From NCBI GenBank assembly GCA_938073745.1, contig CALJFR010000061.1:1-37610 (forward strand): a stretch of 37,610 nt of DNA. The letters are read 5' to 3'. Positions within the stretch are counted from its first letter, which is position 1, and every line of letters starts with the position of its first letter. This document shows, one piece after another, positions 27,805-37,361 of this stretch. A program made the position numbers and the translations under genes. Origin of the DNA: an uncultured Flavobacteriales bacterium (GTDB lineage Bacteria; Bacteroidota; Bacteroidia; Flavobacteriales; BACL11). A model generated the notes under the pieces. It was not told the DNA's origin, did not search any database, and saw nothing but the letters and a program-made list of their open reading frames with translations.

Positions 27805-28275
27805 ATGAAAAAATTTGTTCTTTTACCCCTTTTATTTCTCTTTGTCTATAATCTTAATGGACAAATATTTAAAGATAAGTATATAAAAGATGCTACAAAA
27901 GTTGCAAATATTTGGTTAAAACAAATCAATAATAATAACTACAGTAAGGCATATAATCAATATTCTGAAAAAGTTAAAGAAAACTCAGACTCGACTTATT
28001 GGCTAAAAGCAATAGATCAATTGATGATTGAATTTGGCATATTTGAAAGCAGAAAAATATCTTCAAGTAAATTTGAAAACACTGTTGAAGGTTTAGGCGA
28101 TGGGTTTTATGTTTTTTTAGAATATGAGAGTATATATAAAAACATTAAGCGATGTGATGAATATATTCTGCTTGGCCAAAACGATAAATTTAAATGGAAA
28201 ATATTAAGATACGATTTTTCTTACGAAAGCAATGAGCTTGATCCTGAAAAAGAATTACCTAATCAAGGTAATTGA
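27805..28275 (+). CDS. secreted DUF4019-like protein
   Basis: Signal peptide; ATKVANIWLKQINNNNYSKAYNQYSEKVKENSDSTYWLKAIDQLMIEFG resembles the DUF4019 pattern. Confidence 0.7.
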   Translation: MKKFVLLPLLFLFVYNLNGQIFKDKYIKDATKVANIWLKQINNNNYSKAYNQYSEKVKENSDSTYWLKAIDQLMIEFGIFESRKISSSKFENTVEGLGDGFYVFLEYESIYKNIKRCDEYILLGQNDKFKWKILRYDFSYESNELDPEKELPNQGN

Positions 28276-31200
28276 GCCAAGCAATTTTGTAATTTCTGAA
28301 TCCTTTTTTTCTTTATAATTTATTTCAAAAACATAGGCTCCTAATGGTGCTTTTCTCCCATTTGACATTCTTCCATTCCATGATCCTAATTTATAATAAT
28401 CACCTATAGTATTATTATCACAACTTGAATTCTCTAACATACCATTTGTAAGTAATATTTCGTTGGATTCAAATATTAAAGTTGATGTCCACCTATCATA
28501 GATTTTAATATTAAAATCTGAAAATAATCCCAATGCTTTAATGAAGAAAACATCATTACAATTATCATTATCTGGAGTAAAACTATTTGGAATATAAAAT
28601 TTATTATCAGCTACAACACAAACACTTACGCTAGAAGAATCAACACATCCACCATCATTTATTAAGTATAAGTTGACTTGAAACTGACCTGTATCTGAAT
28701 ATGTATGTGTAGGATTAATGGAATATACATAAGGAATTTTAGTTCCATCACCTAAATCCCAATAACTATCTGAAGAAATTTCATTAAAATTAACAATACT
28801 AAGATCTATTAATTGAATATTCCCATCTAAAATAGATAAACAATCATTAACATTTAAAGAAAAAATTGAAGATAAATTACTGTAACCTTGGATTCTAATG
28901 GTATCATAAATAATACAATTTGTTAGAGTATTTGTTGCTTTTACAGTATAATTTCTATCAACTGTACCGCTTATACTATCACCATAAGAAATAGGGTTTG
29001 TATTCCACTCATACAGTAAATCATTAGAACTAGAAATAATCTTTGCATAGCCAATTTCTCCAAAACATTTTTTTTCAGAGGTTGAGAAATTTAAATTAAA
29101 TGTGTCAAAAACAAAAATCTTTAAAGTATCACTTGTATTGTCTGAACAACCATCTGAAACAGTAAGAATATATTCTGTAGTTTGAATTGGAGAAATCAAA
29201 TGAGAAAAACTATTACTCAAATTATTGTTCCAGTTAAATTCATAATTACCAATACCTCCATTTGAGAAAGCACTTATCGTTAATAATTCACCTGCACAAA
29301 TTGTATCATCTGAAACTGATGTTGTTGTCATTAACTCATCTCTTACAAAGAATACGGTATCTACAGTCGCAATACAATTTCCAGAGCCGTATGTAAAAGA
29401 AATATTATGATATCCAGATCCTGCTATTGAGGGATTAAAAGAAAAATTAACAATACCATTTCCAGACAAAACTCCCCCACTTGGACTAGTACTAACAGCA
29501 TATAAAGAATCTACATAACAATAATTTGTATTAAGACTATTAAATGAAACAACAGGAGGATTGATAATATTTACTTCAAATGAATCAACACATCCATTTT
29601 CAGAAGTATATTCAAGCAAAAGATTTCCTAGAGGAACTAATGATGGATCAAAAAGACCTAAAGTATTATCAATAATTCCAGAACCATTCCATTGCCCACC
29701 AGTAACATTTAAATCCAATATAAAAGGTGGTGAATTTGAGCATATCAAAGTATCTAACAAGATAGGTTTTGGATAAACACTAAAAATAATATCATCATCA
29801 CATGAATTTGCATAATAAGTTACTAAATGGTTTCCACTTCCTGAAACATATGTACTAAAAACTCCTGGAAAATTTGCATTTATAATTCCATTTCCAGCAA
29901 AAACACCATCATATGGTTCTCTGTTAAGAACATTTAAACCTAAAAATAAATCTGAAGAGTTATGACAAAGAAACAAAGTATCTTCAAAAAGCTCAGTATC
30001 AATATTATTAATTTCAATTGTATCAATACATTGATTATTCGAATAAGTTACAAGATCAATTCCTAGGTTATTAGAGGGATCATACAAACCAGTATTTTGA
30101 TTTACAATATTTATTCCATTCCAAATACCACCATTAGGCAAGCCAATTAAATTAAAAGATGATTGGGTTGGACAAATAGTTAGATCATCTCCTGCATCAA
30201 TAGGATCAACAGAAATAGTAACATTATCAGAACAACCTTCAATAGAATATTCAAAAGTGTGACTGCCTGAGGAAATAACATCTGTCAAAACAGTACCATC
30301 ACTAGATATGGAACCGCCTAAAATTGAAACTTTATCAATTGCAATATCTGAGCGAAAATTATGTCCAGTTAATACTCTAAATCTTACTTTTAACTCAGCA
30401 GAAATAAAGTTTGTTAAATCAATGGATTGAGAATACCATTGATTTCCCAAATTTCCGATAATATTCCACACATCAAGCTGCCAAGTAAGACCATTATTAA
30501 TAGAAACATCTACAGATATAATTGAATTTTTATTTCCATTTCCATATTTATGATAATAAAAATTTAAAATTGGATTATTATATTGTGAAATATTAATACA
30601 AGGGCTAATAATAGAAGAATTTTTATATGGATTATTAGAATTTGAAGTTTCAACATATATATATGTATTTAAATCATATGCAGAAGAGGGACCTGTATTG
30701 TTAGAAGGAGTTGCATTTGTATTTGCTACCCAATCAAAATCATTTGCAATATCATTTGTCCAATTTGAGAGTCCTAATTCAAAACTTTCAACATATGGAA
30801 AATCATCAATTGAATTTAAACATGAACTTGGAATTAATGGATTGTTTTCAATAGCAGACCAAGTTCCTCCAGCTGGTGAGGCATATAAAATAGTGTCATT
30901 TGAATTTTGACATAAGGAGAGATTATTTGGCATTGAAATGTTATTTACTACATTTACTAACAAAGTATCTGAACATCCATTAGAAAGCGTATAAACAGCC
31001 TCTATAACTGTACTAAAAGGACCTACATCAATATCACCATTAGCTTGTATATTATTTCCGGACCAATAACCACCAGCTGTAGTTAATGATGAATTTAAAT
31101 TAAAGATTGGAGCATTAATACAAGCAGAGATATCAGGACCTGCACTAATTTCAAGAACTGTAATTTCTAAATTATCAGAACAACCATTAACATCATAATT

Positions 31201-32331
31201 AATAGAATAAATACCTGGAGCTAATACAGTCGGATCAAAAATTGGATTTAAACCATTTACAATACTATTTCCAGACCACCAACCTCCAATTGGAGATGCA
31301 TTTAATGATACTGAAGCATCTGTATTACATATCGAGAAATCTGCTTGAGTTGTTGTTGGAGGAACTACAACTACTGTTACGGTATCAGATTGTGAATTTG
31401 CAGGTCCAAGATCACTAACTGAAACAATATACTGAGTAGTAGTAGTTGGACAAACTTGATGAGGACCAGAATTATTTGGTAAGATTGGAATCCAAGAAAA
31501 ATTATATGATGAAGCATCACCCCCGCTTACTATTGCGTTTAAATCAGTACAATCTCCCAAACAAATAGTATCATCATCAGCAACAATATCAACAATTAAA
31601 GGACAATCTAAAATATCAAAACTTAAAGATGATGATAAGGACCATATACTATCGCAAACATCTTTAAAATAAGATTGAAAAAAAATATTATAAGTACCAC
31701 TTTCATTCAATCCAGGAGTTAGGTTTAATTGAATAATATTTGTTGAGTCATTTAAGCATGCAAGAGGTATTGCATTAACAATTTGATTTAATTGTCCACT
31801 AACAGAAATATTTGCTGTATTTACTGAGTCACAATGTATATTTTTATCTAATATAAGTTCAATAACATTTGTACTACAATTTGGAGTATTAGCTAAACTT
31901 AATTGCGGAGGGTCAGGAACAGATATAATAGTCTCCCAACTTAAATTAAACCCATCGGCAGCAACATTTAAATCTGAAATAAATACAAGTGTTACGCAAC
32001 CATTAGAGGTAATTTGCGGTGGAGTATTCACTCCAGAAAATGGACCTGCTAAAATTGGGGATGTAGTATTAGGACCATCATAAATAAGAAGATAATCATT
32101 TATTGGTTCTGTATTAAAAAAACTAAAATCAATAATAATTGAGGAAGCACCATTGGGACAAATAGTAAATGTAAAGTTTTCATTATGATCATACCAACCT
32201 GCTTGTTGGGAATTAGCCTCACTATCACTTAATGTTCCTTCACAATCATAAACGGTTTGATTAGACATACTATATTGTGCACTTGTAGAAAATGTGAAAA
32301 TTGACAATATTAATATTATTAATACCCTCAT
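28255..32331 (-). CDS. giant CUB/repeat/MAM-like/PKD surface protein with T9SS type B sorting domain
   Basis: N-terminal CUB-like (YDCEGTLSDSEANSQQAGWYDHNENFTFTICPNGASSIIIDFSFFNTEPINDYLLIYDG), GG-WSG-type repeats, MAM-like block, PKD-like YWDLGDGT...HTYSDTGQF, C-terminal FYIPNSFTPDNDNCNDVFFI...GSITLIR. Confidence 0.88.
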   Translation of the reverse strand: MRVLIILILSIFTFSTSAQYSMSNQTVYDCEGTLSDSEANSQQAGWYDHNENFTFTICPNGASSIIIDFSFFNTEPINDYLLIYDGPNTTSPILAGPFSGVNTPPQITSNGCVTLVFISDLNVAADGFNLSWETIISVPDPPQLSLANTPNCSTNVIELILDKNIHCDSVNTANISVSGQLNQIVNAIPLACLNDSTNIIQLNLTPGLNESGTYNIFFQSYFKDVCDSIWSLSSSLSFDILDCPLIVDIVADDDTICLGDCTDLNAIVSGGDASSYNFSWIPILPNNSGPHQVCPTTTTQYIVSVSDLGPANSQSDTVTVVVVPPTTTQADFSICNTDASVSLNASPIGGWWSGNSIVNGLNPIFDPTVLAPGIYSINYDVNGCSDNLEITVLEISAGPDISACINAPIFNLNSSLTTAGGYWSGNNIQANGDIDVGPFSTVIEAVYTLSNGCSDTLLVNVVNNISMPNNLSLCQNSNDTILYASPAGGTWSAIENNPLIPSSCLNSIDDFPYVESFELGLSNWTNDIANDFDWVANTNATPSNNTGPSSAYDLNTYIYVETSNSNNPYKNSSIISPCINISQYNNPILNFYYHKYGNGNKNSIISVDVSINNGLTWQLDVWNIIGNLGNQWYSQSIDLTNFISAELKVRFRVLTGHNFRSDIAIDKVSILGGSISSDGTVLTDVISSGSHTFEYSIEGCSDNVTISVDPIDAGDDLTICPTQSSFNLIGLPNGGIWNGINIVNQNTGLYDPSNNLGIDLVTYSNNQCIDTIEINNIDTELFEDTLFLCHNSSDLFLGLNVLNREPYDGVFAGNGIINANFPGVFSTYVSGSGNHLVTYYANSCDDDIIFSVYPKPILLDTLICSNSPPFILDLNVTGGQWNGSGIIDNTLGLFDPSLVPLGNLLLEYTSENGCVDSFEVNIINPPVVSFNSLNTNYCYVDSLYAVSTSPSGGVLSGNGIVNFSFNPSIAGSGYHNISFTYGSGNCIATVDTVFFVRDELMTTTSVSDDTICAGELLTISAFSNGGIGNYEFNWNNNLSNSFSHLISPIQTTEYILTVSDGCSDNTSDTLKIFVFDTFNLNFSTSEKKCFGEIGYAKIISSSNDLLYEWNTNPISYGDSISGTVDRNYTVKATNTLTNCIIYDTIRIQGYSNLSSIFSLNVNDCLSILDGNIQLIDLSIVNFNEISSDSYWDLGDGTKIPYVYSINPTHTYSDTGQFQVNLYLINDGGCVDSSSVSVCVVADNKFYIPNSFTPDNDNCNDVFFIKALGLFSDFNIKIYDRWTSTLIFESNEILLTNGMLENSSCDNNTIGDYYKLGSWNGRMSNGRKAPLGAYVFEINYKEKKDSEITKLLGSITLIR
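29340..31350 (-). repeat. tandem array of degenerate ~70-85 aa protein repeats inside the giant surface protein (approximate bounds)
   Basis: Recurrent pattern C......L.....GG.W.G..I......FDP...G......Y....C.D...I.V visible at least six times in the translation. Confidence 0.7.
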
Positions 32332-32765
32332 TCTCTATTAACACTAATATTTGGTGTAGTTATTGTATTGCTCCAACTAAGATTTTGATCTTGAATTCTA
32401 ATAGAAAAGTTTACTAATTCAGTATTACCATTTCCAAAAAGAAATGGCGAATCAATTTCAACTAATAATTCTCCAGATACTGATAAATTGTTATTTGGAG
32501 GAGTAATGGGTATTAAATGATAATAATCTGCCTGTGACAATCTACTATCCTTAACTTCTAAAGAAAGATAATCAGGGTCAGAAAAACCTAGATATCCCTC
32601 AGGATGCTCATAGGACAACCTAACATAAATATTTTCTTGAAATTCTATTATGTTTAATGGGAATACTTCTATTAATCCTAAATTAAAATTTACTGGATCA
32701 TCATCTTTAGAGCATGAAGAAAAAAATACAGATACAAAAATTAATAAATAAAAAATAGATCTCAT
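32328..32765 (-). CDS. small lipoprotein
   Basis: Lipobox VSVFFSSCSKDDDP. ATGA overlap with the downstream giant gene. Confidence 0.75.
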   Translation of the reverse strand: MRSIFYLLIFVSVFFSSCSKDDDPVNFNLGLIEVFPLNIIEFQENIYVRLSYEHPEGYLGFSDPDYLSLEVKDSRLSQADYYHLIPITPPNNNLSVSGELLVEIDSPFLFGNGNTELVNFSIRIQDQNLSWSNTITTPNISVNRE

Positions 32766-32766
32766 G

Positions 32767-33690
32767 TTAAATAATAGTTAAAGAGAAATGTTTTATTAAA
32801 ACAAATGGAGAACCATTATTAGGGATTTCAGTTATTGGGTTAACATTATCTTGAACATATATTTTAAAGTATATAACATCCCCTATACTGTATGAGGTTA
32901 AGTCAAAATTATATTTGTGAAAATAGTCCTCATTGGTTGAATAAAAACCGATTTGAGAAATAGGATTATTCAAAACATTTAAATCGTAAGCAGTGATACT
33001 ATTAAAATTAAACAAGCTAGTAGAAAATTTAATTTTATTATGAGTTAATTGATTTGAAGTTAAAACATCATCACTAACGCTAAACCATAAATCCACTGAA
33101 CTTAAAGTGTTAGGCACTAATACTGAGCCATTTGGACTTCTTGATATTGGAATAGTTGTTTGTCCAGAGTTAAAGACTACCATTCCTCTAGCTAAAGGAA
33201 TATCATTCGGCAAAACAGGATTATTACCAAACATGTCCTTTGCTCCATCATCTATCCAGTCTTTTATATTACTAATATATGTCTCATCGTTATTATCCCA
33301 GTCATCTTCAGATTCAAGCGGCATAATTCCAGAAATTCCATCAATATCAACAATTAGTCTATGATATAACACTGATTTTAATGAATTGCCCGGCTCAACA
33401 CGATAAGAAAATGAGTTATTTAAATCATTTTTAATAACAGGATGATAAACTAAAGAGTTATATGCACTTTCAATAGTTCTAAAGTCGGGTTCAAATGTTC
33501 CATCATGACATCCTGAATTAGCGCATGTAGGATAAAATATATTATTATGTAAAGCAGAGAAAGATGTTGGATCTGTAAAATATAAAGTATCATTTTCTGA
33601 AACAATATTCGAATTAAAATCAAAAGGATTTATTTCCTCTTTACAAGAAAAGAAACAAATTAGTAATAGAATCGGTAATACTAGTTTCAT
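32767..33690 (-). CDS. lipoprotein with cytochrome-c-like CX4CH motif
   Basis: Lipobox LICFFSCKE; FYPTCANSGCHDGTFEPDFRTIESAYNSLV...SVLYHRLI...GIMPLES...ISNIKDWIDDGAKD. Confidence 0.75.
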   Translation of the reverse strand: MKLVLPILLLICFFSCKEEINPFDFNSNIVSENDTLYFTDPTSFSALHNNIFYPTCANSGCHDGTFEPDFRTIESAYNSLVYHPVIKNDLNNSFSYRVEPGNSLKSVLYHRLIVDIDGISGIMPLESEDDWDNNDETYISNIKDWIDDGAKDMFGNNPVLPNDIPLARGMVVFNSGQTTIPISRSPNGSVLVPNTLSSVDLWFSVSDDVLTSNQLTHNKIKFSTSLFNFNSITAYDLNVLNNPISQIGFYSTNEDYFHKYNFDLTSYSIGDVIYFKIYVQDNVNPITEIPNNGSPFVLIKHFSLTII

Positions 33691-33693
33691 AGA

Positions 33694-35028
33694 TCATATT
33701 AAATCAAAAAGTGATTTACTCGAAGCCACTAAACCAGAATTTACCACATCATCTTTACAACCAAGAATTTCTGCAATTGTAGGAGTTAAATTAACTATAT
33801 CACCAACTTGATTATTCTCATTTCCAATAGATAAATTACTATCAATTCCAGGACCAACAATAGAGGAAAATATTCGCCTACTATTAGCATCAGAATGATC
33901 GTATCCTGAAAATGCATTTCCATCTACAATATTATTAGAATCTAAATTTCTACCATGTTCAGGGATTACCATCATAGTTGTATTATTAGCCATCTGTGGA
34001 ATATTATTTTGTATGTAATCCCATAAATGACCTACACCGTGGTCAGCTCTATGCAAACTTCCTAAATAACTACTAAAATTACTATGACAACTATCTACAC
34101 TAGATAAGTATACTACAGTTAAAGTTGGTTTAAATCTTTGCATAACCTCGCAAGCATATCCAATTGTGCTTAAATCACCATTATCAGAAACTGGAGGATG
34201 AGCAATTGTTCCAGCTTGTGTTTTATCAAACATATCTTTCACAAATTGTTTAATTTGAATTTTCTCTTCCTCAGTATTTCCAATATTTGGTAATGCTTTT
34301 CCTTGAGAATACCATACATTATCTAAAAAATACTTCATTTTATACATTGGATCTAACTCATCTTCAGGATGATATACTTTTGCATTTTTAAGATGTTTTT
34401 CACCATCCACTCCAAAAGTAATTGTAGGAGCTAAAAAATTAGCTCCATAAGATGCTCCATATTCAGCATGAGTACTATAATCCAAAAGAGGAATAGAATT
34501 TCCTATTCCATTTCCAATAAACCAAGTTTTAGTTGCTTTTTCTCCCTGATGACGTCTTAAATATTCAAAAATAGTAGGCATAGTTGGCTTATTTCTTAAT
34601 CCTTGGGTATACATGTAATTACCTGTTAACATTGCATTAACACCAGCATAATGACCAACTGCAGAAGCATTTACTTCTCGAAATGTAGTTCCTTGATTTT
34701 GAATAGTTTGAGAAAGAATTTGAGGTATTGGTGTATCTCCATTAATTATATTATTTGTTCCATAAACAATTTTGTCAGTCGGAGCAGAACCATCAAAAAG
34801 ATTATATAAAATATTACCTTCACTTGGATAGGATTGGCTATCGTCTAAATATCTTTGAAGAATAGATTCTTGTTGTCTCACCCCACCAGCAAAAGCGACT
34901 AACACAACATGATCTGCCATTCTCATACCTGAGGCGGCAAATAATCTTCCAGAAGGTAAAATAAAAGGAATTGATATAGCAGCAGCTGAGGCTAGTGATG
35001 ATTTTTTTATAAATGATCTTCTTTTCAT
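33694..35028 (-). CDS. DUF1501-like protein with twin-arginine signal
   Basis: MKRRSFIKKSSLASAAAISIPFILPSGRLFAAS; MVIPEHGRNL...GYDHSDANSRRIFSSIVGPGI; HGVGHLWDYIQ; alkaline-phosphatase-superfamily-like layout. Confidence 0.8.
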   Translation of the reverse strand: MKRRSFIKKSSLASAAAISIPFILPSGRLFAASGMRMADHVVLVAFAGGVRQQESILQRYLDDSQSYPSEGNILYNLFDGSAPTDKIVYGTNNIINGDTPIPQILSQTIQNQGTTFREVNASAVGHYAGVNAMLTGNYMYTQGLRNKPTMPTIFEYLRRHQGEKATKTWFIGNGIGNSIPLLDYSTHAEYGASYGANFLAPTITFGVDGEKHLKNAKVYHPEDELDPMYKMKYFLDNVWYSQGKALPNIGNTEEEKIQIKQFVKDMFDKTQAGTIAHPPVSDNGDLSTIGYACEVMQRFKPTLTVVYLSSVDSCHSNFSSYLGSLHRADHGVGHLWDYIQNNIPQMANNTTMMVIPEHGRNLDSNNIVDGNAFSGYDHSDANSRRIFSSIVGPGIDSNLSIGNENNQVGDIVNLTPTIAEILGCKDDVVNSGLVASSKSLFDLI

Positions 35029-35031
35029 ACT

Positions 35032-35526
35032 TTAATAAAATTGATATTCATTAGACAAAGCAAAAGACATGTAAACCATTTCTGAACTAACATTAGGATT
35101 AGAATTTAAAAAGTTAAGAAAAAATTCTCTTTCAGCTTCAGTTATATCTCTAACAAAGAAACGCCTATATGATTCTTCTAAAAAAACATCTAGATCAGCA
35201 CGCATTAGTGAATCAGAAGGAAGGATTACATCTTGACTATTCATAAAATTACTTAATACAATTTCATGAGCAACCTCTTTATCTCCGATTGATTCAATAC
35301 ATCTAGTAATTTCAACTAACTCATTTGATGACAAAGCTTGTTGGAAGAGATTTGCATAAACAATTGAAATATATTGACCAACTGATTTTAATTTATTCTT
35401 ATTTGCATTATATGAACTTGATTGCAATTGATTGATATCATATACAACATCATCTTTTTGACATGATGAGACAATTAAAATCGTAAAAATAAAAACAAGA
35501 AATCTATTAAAAATGTGCATATTCAT
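35032..35526 (-). CDS. lipoprotein with DUF1553-like helical C-terminus
   Basis: From internal start MNMHIFNRFLVFIFTILIVSSCQKDD (lipobox). C-terminus LEESYRRFFVRDITEAEREFFLNFL. The ORF-track start 35583 gives an unlikely N-terminus. Confidence 0.65.
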   Translation of the reverse strand: MNMHIFNRFLVFIFTILIVSSCQKDDVVYDINQLQSSSYNANKNKLKSVGQYISIVYANLFQQALSSNELVEITRCIESIGDKEVAHEIVLSNFMNSQDVILPSDSLMRADLDVFLEESYRRFFVRDITEAEREFFLNFLNSNPNVSSEMVYMSFALSNEYQFY

Positions 35527-36421
35527 CTGTTTGCATAACATAACGTTGTAATTTAAGAAAATCACAGGAAATATAAAAATCATTCATTAAAAAGTCTGAT
35601 TCTGTTGTTGTTGGTACTCGCGCTAAAAGAGTTAAATAAGTCCAATGAATAATTCCTTCGTAAAACTCACGTGTATTACAAATAATATTAATAAAATCTT
35701 CTTTGTTTGTACCTGAGGACCCAAGAACTGTATAGGGTTGTTCGTCTTCAATCATAGCATATGAATTATTAAACTCATATTGAGTAGGAAATCTAAATAA
35801 TAAATTATCGAAAGCAGCATTAACAAAATTAAAGGTATTCATATTTATATTATCATAAATTGGATTATTAATCATTCTTTTATGCATTTCCTTAATATTA
35901 ATTAAGCTATTGTAATATTCTGATTCAGAGTTTATTACATCTTTAAACCTATAGTATTTTATTAAGTTTTCATGAGCACTAATCATGTTTCCCCCAAGTG
36001 AATCATTAACATAGCGATTATATCTTGTATTCATTACAGTTTGAATATGAGAATTCGATACTCCTTCAATTAATCTAACTTTAACCATTTCGTATATACG
36101 ATGAAAATAAGCTATTTTATATGATGAGTCACCAGGAATAAAATTAGTATCAAATTGTAGTTTAAAAATTAGAGAATCTCTTGATTGAATTGAAACATCA
36201 TTATCTCTAAGAAACTGTACATCTGAACTCATTTCATCGTCCAGTGGTTCTCTACCAATTAAATCAATATAAAGTCTATTTACATAATTTTCCAACAAAA
36301 TAGTGGGAATTTCACTGTAAATAGGAGCATTATTGTTTGGAATTATAACAACATCTTTTTTGCAAGAAGTTATAGTTATAGTAATTGCTACAAAAATTAT
36401 ATAAAATACATACTTATTCAA
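35507..36421 (-). CDS. lipoprotein with DUF1549/DUF1553-like motifs
   Basis: Lipobox ITITSCKKD; LLENYVNRLYIDLIGREPLDDEMSSDVQFLR and HWTYLTLLARVPTTTESDFL. Confidence 0.65.
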   Translation of the reverse strand: MNKYVFYIIFVAITITITSCKKDVVIIPNNNAPIYSEIPTILLENYVNRLYIDLIGREPLDDEMSSDVQFLRDNDVSIQSRDSLIFKLQFDTNFIPGDSSYKIAYFHRIYEMVKVRLIEGVSNSHIQTVMNTRYNRYVNDSLGGNMISAHENLIKYYRFKDVINSESEYYNSLINIKEMHKRMINNPIYDNINMNTFNFVNAAFDNLLFRFPTQYEFNNSYAMIEDEQPYTVLGSSGTNKEDFINIICNTREFYEGIIHWTYLTLLARVPTTTESDFLMNDFYISCDFLKLQRYVMQTDEYAHF

Positions 36422-37361
36422 TTATTATTTTTTTGAAGAAATTATTATTTCCAGAATGAATATTTAAAAAGTATAATCCTGATTTTAAGTATGAAAGATT
36501 AAGAGTGTGTAAATTTCTAAGGTTATATTTCTCTTTTATAAGTTTACCTGTAATATCATAGATATAAAAACTATAATAATGATTGGTATTATTCTGAAGA
36601 TTTAAATAATTATCAGTAGGATTAGGATAAATATTAAAGGTTGAAGACAAATCTACAATATTTGAAACACAAGAATCAACATCAACAAATATCTCTCCTT
36701 TTCTTTGACATCCATTAGCATCAATAGCTTCAGCAATATATGTTATATCTTGGTTTGGATAGAAAGTAGCAGGGTTTGAAGATTGTGGAGAATTTAACCA
36801 AATCGTATTAACAAATGAAGTGTCATGCACTAAATAAATAGAATCACCTAAGCAAATATTTGGTGGATTTGGAATTGAATAGATAGTCATTGACATAGTC
36901 TGCATATTAATACTTGTAGAATCAATACAGCCATTTGCATCTGTAACAGAAACGTAATACATACCAGGAACAGCAACAGTTAATAAGTTACCAGTTGACA
37001 GAATAGCTCCAGAATCATCCCACCAAGAATAAATAAAAGGACTAACTAAACTAGCAGAAGATGCTTCTAATATAACGGGATAATTACAAGCAATTGAATC
37101 TCCAATGATATTTACATCACACGCAGACAATGAACAAGGCTGTCCAGGAACAAGTGTTGGGTCTACAGGTCCAATTATTGTATTACCATCACATTGAGCC
37201 AAACAACTATTCGAATATACCAATCCATTACAAGCACAAACTGGCGCATATATCATTGGACATATACAAAAAGGATTAATTAATGAAGAATCAATACATT
37301 GAGATTTTGCTGTATTTGAAAAACAAAAAATTAAAAAAACCAAGGTGATAATCTTTTTCAT
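36414..37361 (-). CDS. Kazal-like domain protein with C-terminal T9SS type A sorting domain
   Basis: Signal peptide; CICPMIYAPVCACNGLVYSNSCLAQCDG; C-terminal FNIYPNPTDNYLNLQ...YDITGKLIKE...LKSGLYFLNI...KKIIIE. Confidence 0.85.
   Translation of the reverse strand: MKKIITLVFLIFCFSNTAKSQCIDSSLINPFCICPMIYAPVCACNGLVYSNSCLAQCDGNTIIGPVDPTLVPGQPCSLSACDVNIIGDSIACNYPVILEASSASLVSPFIYSWWDDSGAILSTGNLLTVAVPGMYYVSVTDANGCIDSTSINMQTMSMTIYSIPNPPNICLGDSIYLVHDTSFVNTIWLNSPQSSNPATFYPNQDITYIAEAIDANGCQRKGEIFVDVDSCVSNIVDLSSTFNIYPNPTDNYLNLQNNTNHYYSFYIYDITGKLIKEKYNLRNLHTLNLSYLKSGLYFLNIHSGNNNFFKKIIIE

What the first reader, a model, noticed from the sequence alone, without database searches (positions are those of the whole stretch)
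28255..37361. Seven-gene DUF1501 / split DUF1549-1553 / cytochrome-like / T9SS surface operon
Seven minus-strand genes run from 37361 to 28255 with gaps of 1-5 nt or short overlaps. Order: Kazal-T9SS-A, DUF1549-like lipoprotein, DUF1553-like lipoprotein, Tat-type DUF1501 protein, CX4CH cytochrome-like lipoprotein, small lipoprotein, giant T9SS-B protein. From established knowledge, in Planctomycetes DUF1501 proteins commonly sit beside single polypeptides fusing a planctomycete-type cytochrome, DUF1549 and DUF1553. Here the same pieces appear split into separate lipoproteins and joined to T9SS-secreted surface proteins. Inference: a cell-envelope complex with a Tat-exported hydrolase-like core, several lipoproteins and two T9SS surface partners. 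Its function is unknown to me.
Basis: partly seen in the sequence, partly recalled or inferred. Interest (0 to 1): 0.72.

Follow-up and report, generated by a model that had tools for sequence, protein, structure and literature searches.

The report
Split haem-lipoprotein/Tat envelope gene cluster
A tightly packed operon in an uncultured marine flavobacterium holds five genes for exported proteins that always occur together and in the same order across several bacterial families; it looks like a broken-apart relative of a widespread but uncharacterised planctomycete-type cytochrome/DUF1501 system, here with surface proteins attached.

Summary
The seven-gene minus-strand operon is real and packed as described. 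Its core is five genes (G2-G6). In 37 of 37 distinct loci they are co-linear (two genes are inserted in one), often with 4-nt start/stop overlaps. Strong G2, G4 and G5 matches fall in the same ~30 of 397 Flavobacteriales genomes. The core also reaches another order of the class. The T9SS proteins are additions: the type-B giant protein (G7) accompanies only one of two deep clades, in two other loci with a PorP/SprF-family gene straight after it. The domain reading needs correcting. G5's N-terminus is a PSCyt1-like haem-c domain (CX4CH in 41/42, Met-Pro in 42/42). G4 is an alkaline-phosphatase-superfamily Tat protein with a DUF1501-like degenerate active site, but it fails the Pfam DUF1501 test. 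G2 folds like a phycobilisome-linker/DUF4214 domain (pLDDT 90; Foldseek TM 0.65 over the target); only short segments of G2 and G3 match DUF1549, DUF1553 or DUF1800. Best explanation: an outer-membrane-associated complex, a "split" relative of the PSCyt1-DUF1549-DUF1553/DUF1501 module, with a haem lipoprotein and a Tat-folded partner held by linker-type lipoproteins. Its substrate is unknown.

The parts
36414..37361 (-). G1: Kazal-like, T9SS type A secreted protein (315 aa); lineage-specific accessory
   Evidence: Por_Secre_tail E 4e-16; Kazal_2 21.9 bits, just below its 22.8 cut-off; similar proteins upstream of G2 in family f1 loci, absent in clade II
35507..36421 (-). G2: helical lipoprotein (304 aa), phycobilisome-linker/DUF4214-like fold with DUF1549- and DUF1800-like segments; core
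   Evidence: AlphaFold pLDDT 90.1, pTM 0.80; Foldseek top hits PBS linker domains; DUF4214 in 14/17 and PBS_linker_poly in 8/17 homologues at E<=1; hhalign to DUF1549 and DUF1800
35032..35526 (-). G3: helical lipoprotein (~163 aa), DUF4214-like, C-terminus resembling the end of DUF1553 proteins; core
   Evidence: One homologue above the Pfam DUF4214 cut-off (25.3 vs 23.2 bits); hhalign to DUF1553 end, score 37.6 vs null maximum 20.9
33694..35028 (-). G4: Tat-exported alkaline-phosphatase-superfamily protein (444 aa), DUF1501-like; core
   Evidence: Phosphodiest 24.9 bits over cut-off; hhalign to phosphodiesterase-like proteins E 5e-33 and to DUF1501 E 5e-8; 'ExGRN...DH' motif
32767..33690 (-). 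G5: lipoprotein (307 aa) with PSCyt1-like haem-c domain (CX4CH + Met) and C-terminal beta domain; core
   Evidence: CX4CHD in 41/42 homologues (CX5CHD in one), Met-Pro in 42/42; hhalign to PSCyt1 region E ~1e-9; C-terminal region mostly beta strands, block pLDDT about 80-96
32328..32765 (-). G6: small lipoprotein (145 aa), no known family; core
   Evidence: Lipobox plus CSKDDD export-type signal; conserved in all complete loci
28255..32331 (-). G7: T9SS type B secreted protein (1358 aa) with CUB, MAM and PKD domains; clade I accessory
   Evidence: CUB, MAM, PKD, CHU_C, TIGR04131; length kept at 1355-1362 aa in most complete family f1 copies; PorP/SprF-family gene directly follows in L041 and L181

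Best explanation
The operon encodes an outer-membrane-associated protein complex. It is a 'split' relative of the PSCyt1-DUF1549-DUF1553 plus DUF1501 module. G5 carries one haem c (CX4CH, Met as sixth ligand). G4 is folded in the cytoplasm and exported by Tat; it is an alkaline-phosphatase-fold protein that has lost the canonical catalytic set and more likely binds a ligand, or does non-standard chemistry, than hydrolyses like a normal phosphatase. G2 and G3 are linker-type helical lipoproteins that hold G4 and G5 together; G6 is a small lipoprotein subunit. In clade I, G7 is secreted by T9SS, held at the surface by a PorP/SprF-like barrel, and acts as the outward binding arm. SHOWN here by computation: gene linkage, co-occurrence, homologies, export signals and the predicted fold of G2. 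INFERRED: physical complex, surface position, electron transfer, ligand.
For: Co-linear in 37/37 distinct loci, with frequent 4-nt start/stop overlaps. Strong G2, G4 and G5 matches fall in the same 30 of 397 genomes, plus one (G097) with G2 and G5 as partial matches on separate contigs. Pairwise distance matrices of the five proteins correlate at r 0.90-0.97. Haem and Met motifs are near-invariant. Export: lipoboxes, with acidic/Lys residues after the cysteine enriched over other predicted lipoproteins (signal defined in PMC5080379); TatC, a cytochrome-c assembly protein and PorP/SprF genes occur in the same genome. G2 linker fold. G4 active-site degeneration. Anchoring of type-B T9SS proteins by PorP-like proteins is published (PMC9143113).
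Against: No biochemical or expression data. The export-signal reading places the lipoproteins on the surface, while a Tat protein without a T9SS tail should stay in the periplasm, so the topology is unresolved. Correlated distances also follow from shared vertical descent. The haem domain of G5 was poorly modelled (no haem). Nothing identifies the substrate. The background set for the export signal was small and may contain false lipoproteins.
Confidence: 0.6

Rival explanations
1. A surface nutrient-acquisition (hydrolase) system: G4 is a working phosphodiesterase/sulfatase-type enzyme fed by surface lipoproteins and the CUB/MAM protein; the haem domain is structural.
For: G4 is closest in sequence to Bacteroidota phosphodiesterase-like proteins (hhalign E 5e-33) and hits Pfam Phosphodiest above cut-off.
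Against: The metal-binding Asp of 'DG' is Gly, the nucleophile position aligns with an invariant His, and the 'DHG' pair is E-x-G with a variable middle residue. No transporter gene is associated.
Confidence: 0.17
2. A surface electron-transfer or redox-sensing device: G5 shuttles electrons between the respiratory chain and an outside partner, with the rest as scaffold.
For: Near-invariant haem and Met ligands. In one genome a NapH-like ferredoxin protein (weak, below the model cut-off) and an Alginate_exp-like protein are inserted between G2 and G3 (L078).
Against: A single haem cannot span the outer membrane; the ferredoxin/barrel insertion was seen in one locus only; no multihaem cytochrome nearby.
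Confidence: 0.13
3. Merely co-inherited secreted genes with no physical complex; the order is kept by operon inertia.
For: The same linkage data would arise; no direct interaction evidence exists.
Against: Order kept down to ~30% identity between deep clades, in another order of the class, and in a second divergent copy in some genomes, while the flanking genes change.
Confidence: 0.1

Closest known systems
PSCyt1-DUF1549-DUF1553 proteins with neighbouring DUF1501 (Planctomycetes, Verrucomicrobia, some Bacteroidota)
   Same: A PSCyt1-like haem domain, DUF1549/1553-like segments and a Tat DUF1501-like protein occur in one gene cluster
   Different: Here the parts are separate lipoproteins; CX4CH instead of CX2CH; G2 and G3 match only short segments and G2 folds like PBS-linker/DUF4214; G6 is extra; T9SS partners in one clade
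DUF1800-DUF1501 pair (widespread in Bacteroidota)
   Same: Helical partner gene beside a Tat DUF1501-type protein; the C-terminal part of G2 aligns with a DUF1800 segment
   Different: DUF1800 not found in the window's genome nor matched by G2/G3 in Pfam; many of these DUF1501 proteins are longer and some carry their own T9SS-A tail
Phycobilisome linker domain (PF00427) / DUF4214
   Same: G2 fold and repeat motif; one G3 homologue passes the DUF4214 cut-off
   Different: Lipoproteins of Flavobacteriales without phycobilisomes; no phycobiliprotein partner
T9SS type B adhesins with PorP/SprF anchors (e.g. SprB-SprF, PG1035-PorP)
   Same: G7 sorting domain; PorP/SprF-family gene directly after G7 in two loci
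   Different: G7 sits in an operon with the haem/Tat core, which no SprB system described in the papers read here has

Membership tests
DUF1501 (PF07394) | Scores above Pfam gathering cut-off | tested here: not met
   No hit for G4 or 14 homologues at E<=1; none in own genome
DUF1501 (PF07394) | Profile-level homology with Tat start, E-x-G-R and DH motifs | tested here: met
   hhalign 94.8%, E 5e-8 over 345 columns; motifs aligned
PSCyt1 (PF07635) | Scores above Pfam gathering cut-off | tested here: not met
   No hit for G5; best homologue 14.2 bits vs 22
PSCyt1 (PF07635) | Homologous haem-c domain with axial Met | tested here: met
   E ~1e-9 over 129 columns including the CxnCH, PG..S.L..R, MP and WI..GA motifs; spacing CX4CH differs; haem itself not tested
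DUF1549/DUF1553 (PF07583, PF07587) | Full-domain Pfam match | tested here: not met
   Only 2 of 17 G2 homologues give a weak DUF1553 hit, E 0.022 at best
DUF1549/DUF1553 (PF07583, PF07587) | Local profile homology | tested here: met
   Scores 45.3 (G2-DUF1549) and 37.6 (G3-DUF1553) vs null maxima 18.2 and 20.9; short segments, probabilities 30-60%
PBS linker / DUF4214 | Characteristic helical fold and motif | tested here: met
   Foldseek prob 1.00 and TM 0.65 over the target although E 0.28; PBS_linker E 2.5e-7 in a homologue
Active alkaline-phosphatase-superfamily hydrolase | Intact metal ligands and nucleophile | tested here: not met
   D312, H315, H378 kept; N-terminal Asp, nucleophile and DHG His lost
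T9SS type B cargo | Type B C-terminal sorting domain; T9SS present | tested here: met
   TIGR04131 35.1 vs 35 bits, CHU_C; PorP/SprF genes in own genome
Bacteroidota surface lipoproteins | Export signal C-X-K-(D/E)2 | tested here: inconclusive
   Exact in window G3 (CQKDD) and G6 (CSKDD), partial in G2 (CKKDV) and G5 (CKEEI); enrichment; localisation untested

The most novel reading that the evidence does not exclude
An undescribed outer-membrane redox machine in which phycobilisome-linker-fold lipoproteins act as assembly scaffolds outside photosynthesis, joining a haem lipoprotein to a Tat-folded, catalytically divergent DUF1501-type protein; being split into five small genes, it would expose the common architecture behind DUF1501, DUF1549, DUF1553 and DUF1800.
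Probability: 0.3. Interest if true: 0.78.

Novelty: new variant of a known kind. Interest (0 to 1): 0.55.

Why it matters
DUF1501/DUF1549/DUF1553/DUF1800 genes are widespread (49 of 118 sampled Bacteroidota carry DUF1501; DUF1549 and DUF1553 are each represented 41 times in Rhodopirellula baltica, PMC2754498) and their function is unknown. A five-gene split version, with one function per small protein, makes the system tractable: subunits can be deleted, tagged and purified one by one. It also points to a common helical module linking phycobilisome linkers, DUF4214 and these families.

Tried and rejected
Direct Pfam/NCBIfam naming as DUF1501, DUF1549, DUF1553 or PSCyt1: rejected. Sequence search of G3-G6 against the PDB found no credible relative; DUF1501 and DUF1800 examples have no solved relative either. 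Foldseek of G5 gives only generic beta-sandwich matches and its haem domain is unreliable. The column-shuffled null for hhalign gave unexplained outliers near 132, so it was dropped for reversed and unrelated-family nulls. A deep G4 alignment was contaminated by phosphodiesterase-like proteins (its E 1e-24 to DUF1501 is not used) and was rebuilt. Literature searches on DUF1501, DUF1549 and DUF4214 found no function. No tRNA or Rfam match in the window. G2-G6 show no similarity to one another beyond the signal peptides.
Full report
OBSERVATION. Seven minus-strand genes lie between 37361 and 28255 with gaps of 1-3 nt or overlaps of 4 to about 20 nt. The window is one contig of an incomplete assembly (0.98 Mb, 72 contigs, 53.6% complete). 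I call the genes G1 to G7 in reading order.

WHAT IS THE CONSERVED UNIT. Relatives of G4 were fetched from public genomes. In 36 of 37 distinct loci with enough flank, G2-G3-G4-G5-G6 are present in that order on one strand; in the 37th (L014) G2 lies beyond two inserted genes, seen in the longer stretch L078. Gaps are mostly within a few bases, with many 4-nt overlaps at G4-G5 and G5-G6. In the same 397 Flavobacteriales genomes, strong G4, G2 and G5 matches fall in the same 30 genomes, plus one (G097) where G2 and G5 are partial matches on different contigs and G4 was not found strongly (counts read by me from the tables). The core reaches another order of the class (G450, L181). Distance matrices of the five proteins correlate at r 0.90-0.97, which fits joint inheritance but does not prove contact.

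TWO CLADES. A concatenated tree splits the loci into clade I (the window's type) and clade II; support for the split is moderate (0.64). Clade I loci carry G7, a T9SS type-B protein, directly after G6 where the contig is long enough. Clade II, which includes a second copy in some genomes of the window's own family (L067, L072, L079), carries neither G7 nor G1. In L041 and L181 a PorP/SprF-family gene follows G7 directly, matching the published role of PorP-like proteins as anchors of type-B cargo (PMC9143113). G1 (Kazal-like, T9SS-A) is variable.

WHAT THE PROTEINS ARE. G5: no Pfam hit, but its N-terminal half aligns with the PSCyt1 part of DUF1549/1553 proteins (hhalign E 1.1e-9; E 4.6e-10 with the first 28 target residues trimmed; best of 13 unrelated families scores 22.5 against 83.4). 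CX4CHD occurs in 41 of 42 homologues (CX5CHD in one) and a Met-Pro in all 42. The C-terminal half is a confidently modelled beta domain.

G4: Tat start; Pfam Phosphodiest just over cut-off, not DUF1501. Profile comparison gives E 5e-33 to phosphodiesterase-like Bacteroidota proteins and E 5e-8 to DUF1501. In the joint alignment the 'VIDG' Asp is Gly, the nucleophile position is the invariant His126, D312 and H315 and H378 are kept, and 'DHGR' becomes 'ExGR' with a variable x. DUF1501 shares the GG, E-x-G-R and DH pattern. So G4 works from a DUF1501-type site, not a normal phosphatase site (inference).

G2 and G3: helical lipoproteins. G2 was modelled well (pLDDT 90.1, pTM 0.80). Its Foldseek top hits are phycobilisome linker domains (prob 1.00, TM 0.65 over the target, though E 0.28), in line with Pfam PBS_linker_poly (E 2.5e-7) and DUF4214 hits in homologues and an independent PDB sequence hit (E 7.7e-6, a sum of repeated weak stretches). 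One G3 homologue passes the DUF4214 cut-off. Short segments also match DUF1549 (G2, near the start of the mature protein), DUF1800 (G2 C-terminus) and the end of DUF1553 (G3), scores 45.3, 45.4 and 37.6 against null maxima of 18.2 and 20.9. These are suggestive, not full-domain matches.

EXPORT. Window G3 (CQKDD) and G6 (CSKDD) match the published surface-export signal C-X-K-(D/E)2 exactly, G2 and G5 in part (PMC5080379). Two or more acidic residues after the cysteine occur in 18/31, 18/35, 18/28 and 27/33 homologues of G2, G3, G5 and G6 against 3/35 other predicted lipoproteins. TatC, a cytochrome-c assembly protein and PorP/SprF proteins are encoded in the same genome.

MECHANISM. I commit to an outer-membrane-associated complex: haem lipoprotein plus Tat-folded DUF1501-type protein, held by linker-type lipoproteins, with a T9SS-B binding arm in clade I. 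Linkage, homology, motifs and the G2 fold are shown by computation; contact, topology, redox work and ligand are inferred. The main open problem is topology: the lipoproteins look surface-bound, G4 looks periplasmic. Some DUF1501 proteins of other Bacteroidota carry both a Tat-type start (as read from sequence) and a T9SS-A tail, so surface placement of DUF1501-type proteins has a precedent in sequence.

COMPARISON AND NOVELTY. The nearest known kind is the PSCyt1-DUF1549-DUF1553 protein with a DUF1501 neighbour, function unknown (PMC5615132; PMC2754498; PMC4452313), then the DUF1800-DUF1501 pair (PMC5122149). This module resembles them in parts list but fails their Pfam membership tests, is split over five genes, uses CX4CH, and adds T9SS partners. 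I found no description of it in the library searched. I rate it a new variant of a known kind, interest 0.55.

Noticed in passing
L148, L153 (DUF1501 genes of other Bacteroidota): DUF1501 proteins with a twin-arginine-type start also carry a C-terminal T9SS type A sorting domain, i.e. apparent Tat plus T9SS export of one protein.
   Followed up: partly
L078:11371-13805 (between G3 and G2): An Alginate_exp-like protein and a weakly NapH-like ferredoxin protein are inserted inside the otherwise unbroken core.
   Followed up: partly
L074 (G047 contig 25): This copy has interrupted G2, G4 and G7 reading frames; either a decaying operon or assembly errors.
   Followed up: no
L067, L072, L079 versus L073, L078: Some genomes carry two divergent copies of the core, the second followed by a thioredoxin-domain (DsbH/DUF255) protein.
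   Followed up: partly
window:27805-28275: A DUF4019 protein gene on the plus strand overlaps the 3' end of G7 by 21 nt (convergent).
   Followed up: no
DUF1800 protein of L158: A DUF1800 protein gives weak hits to DUF1585 and DUF1553, and G2 aligns with DUF1800, hinting at one helical superfamily across these DUFs.
   Followed up: partly
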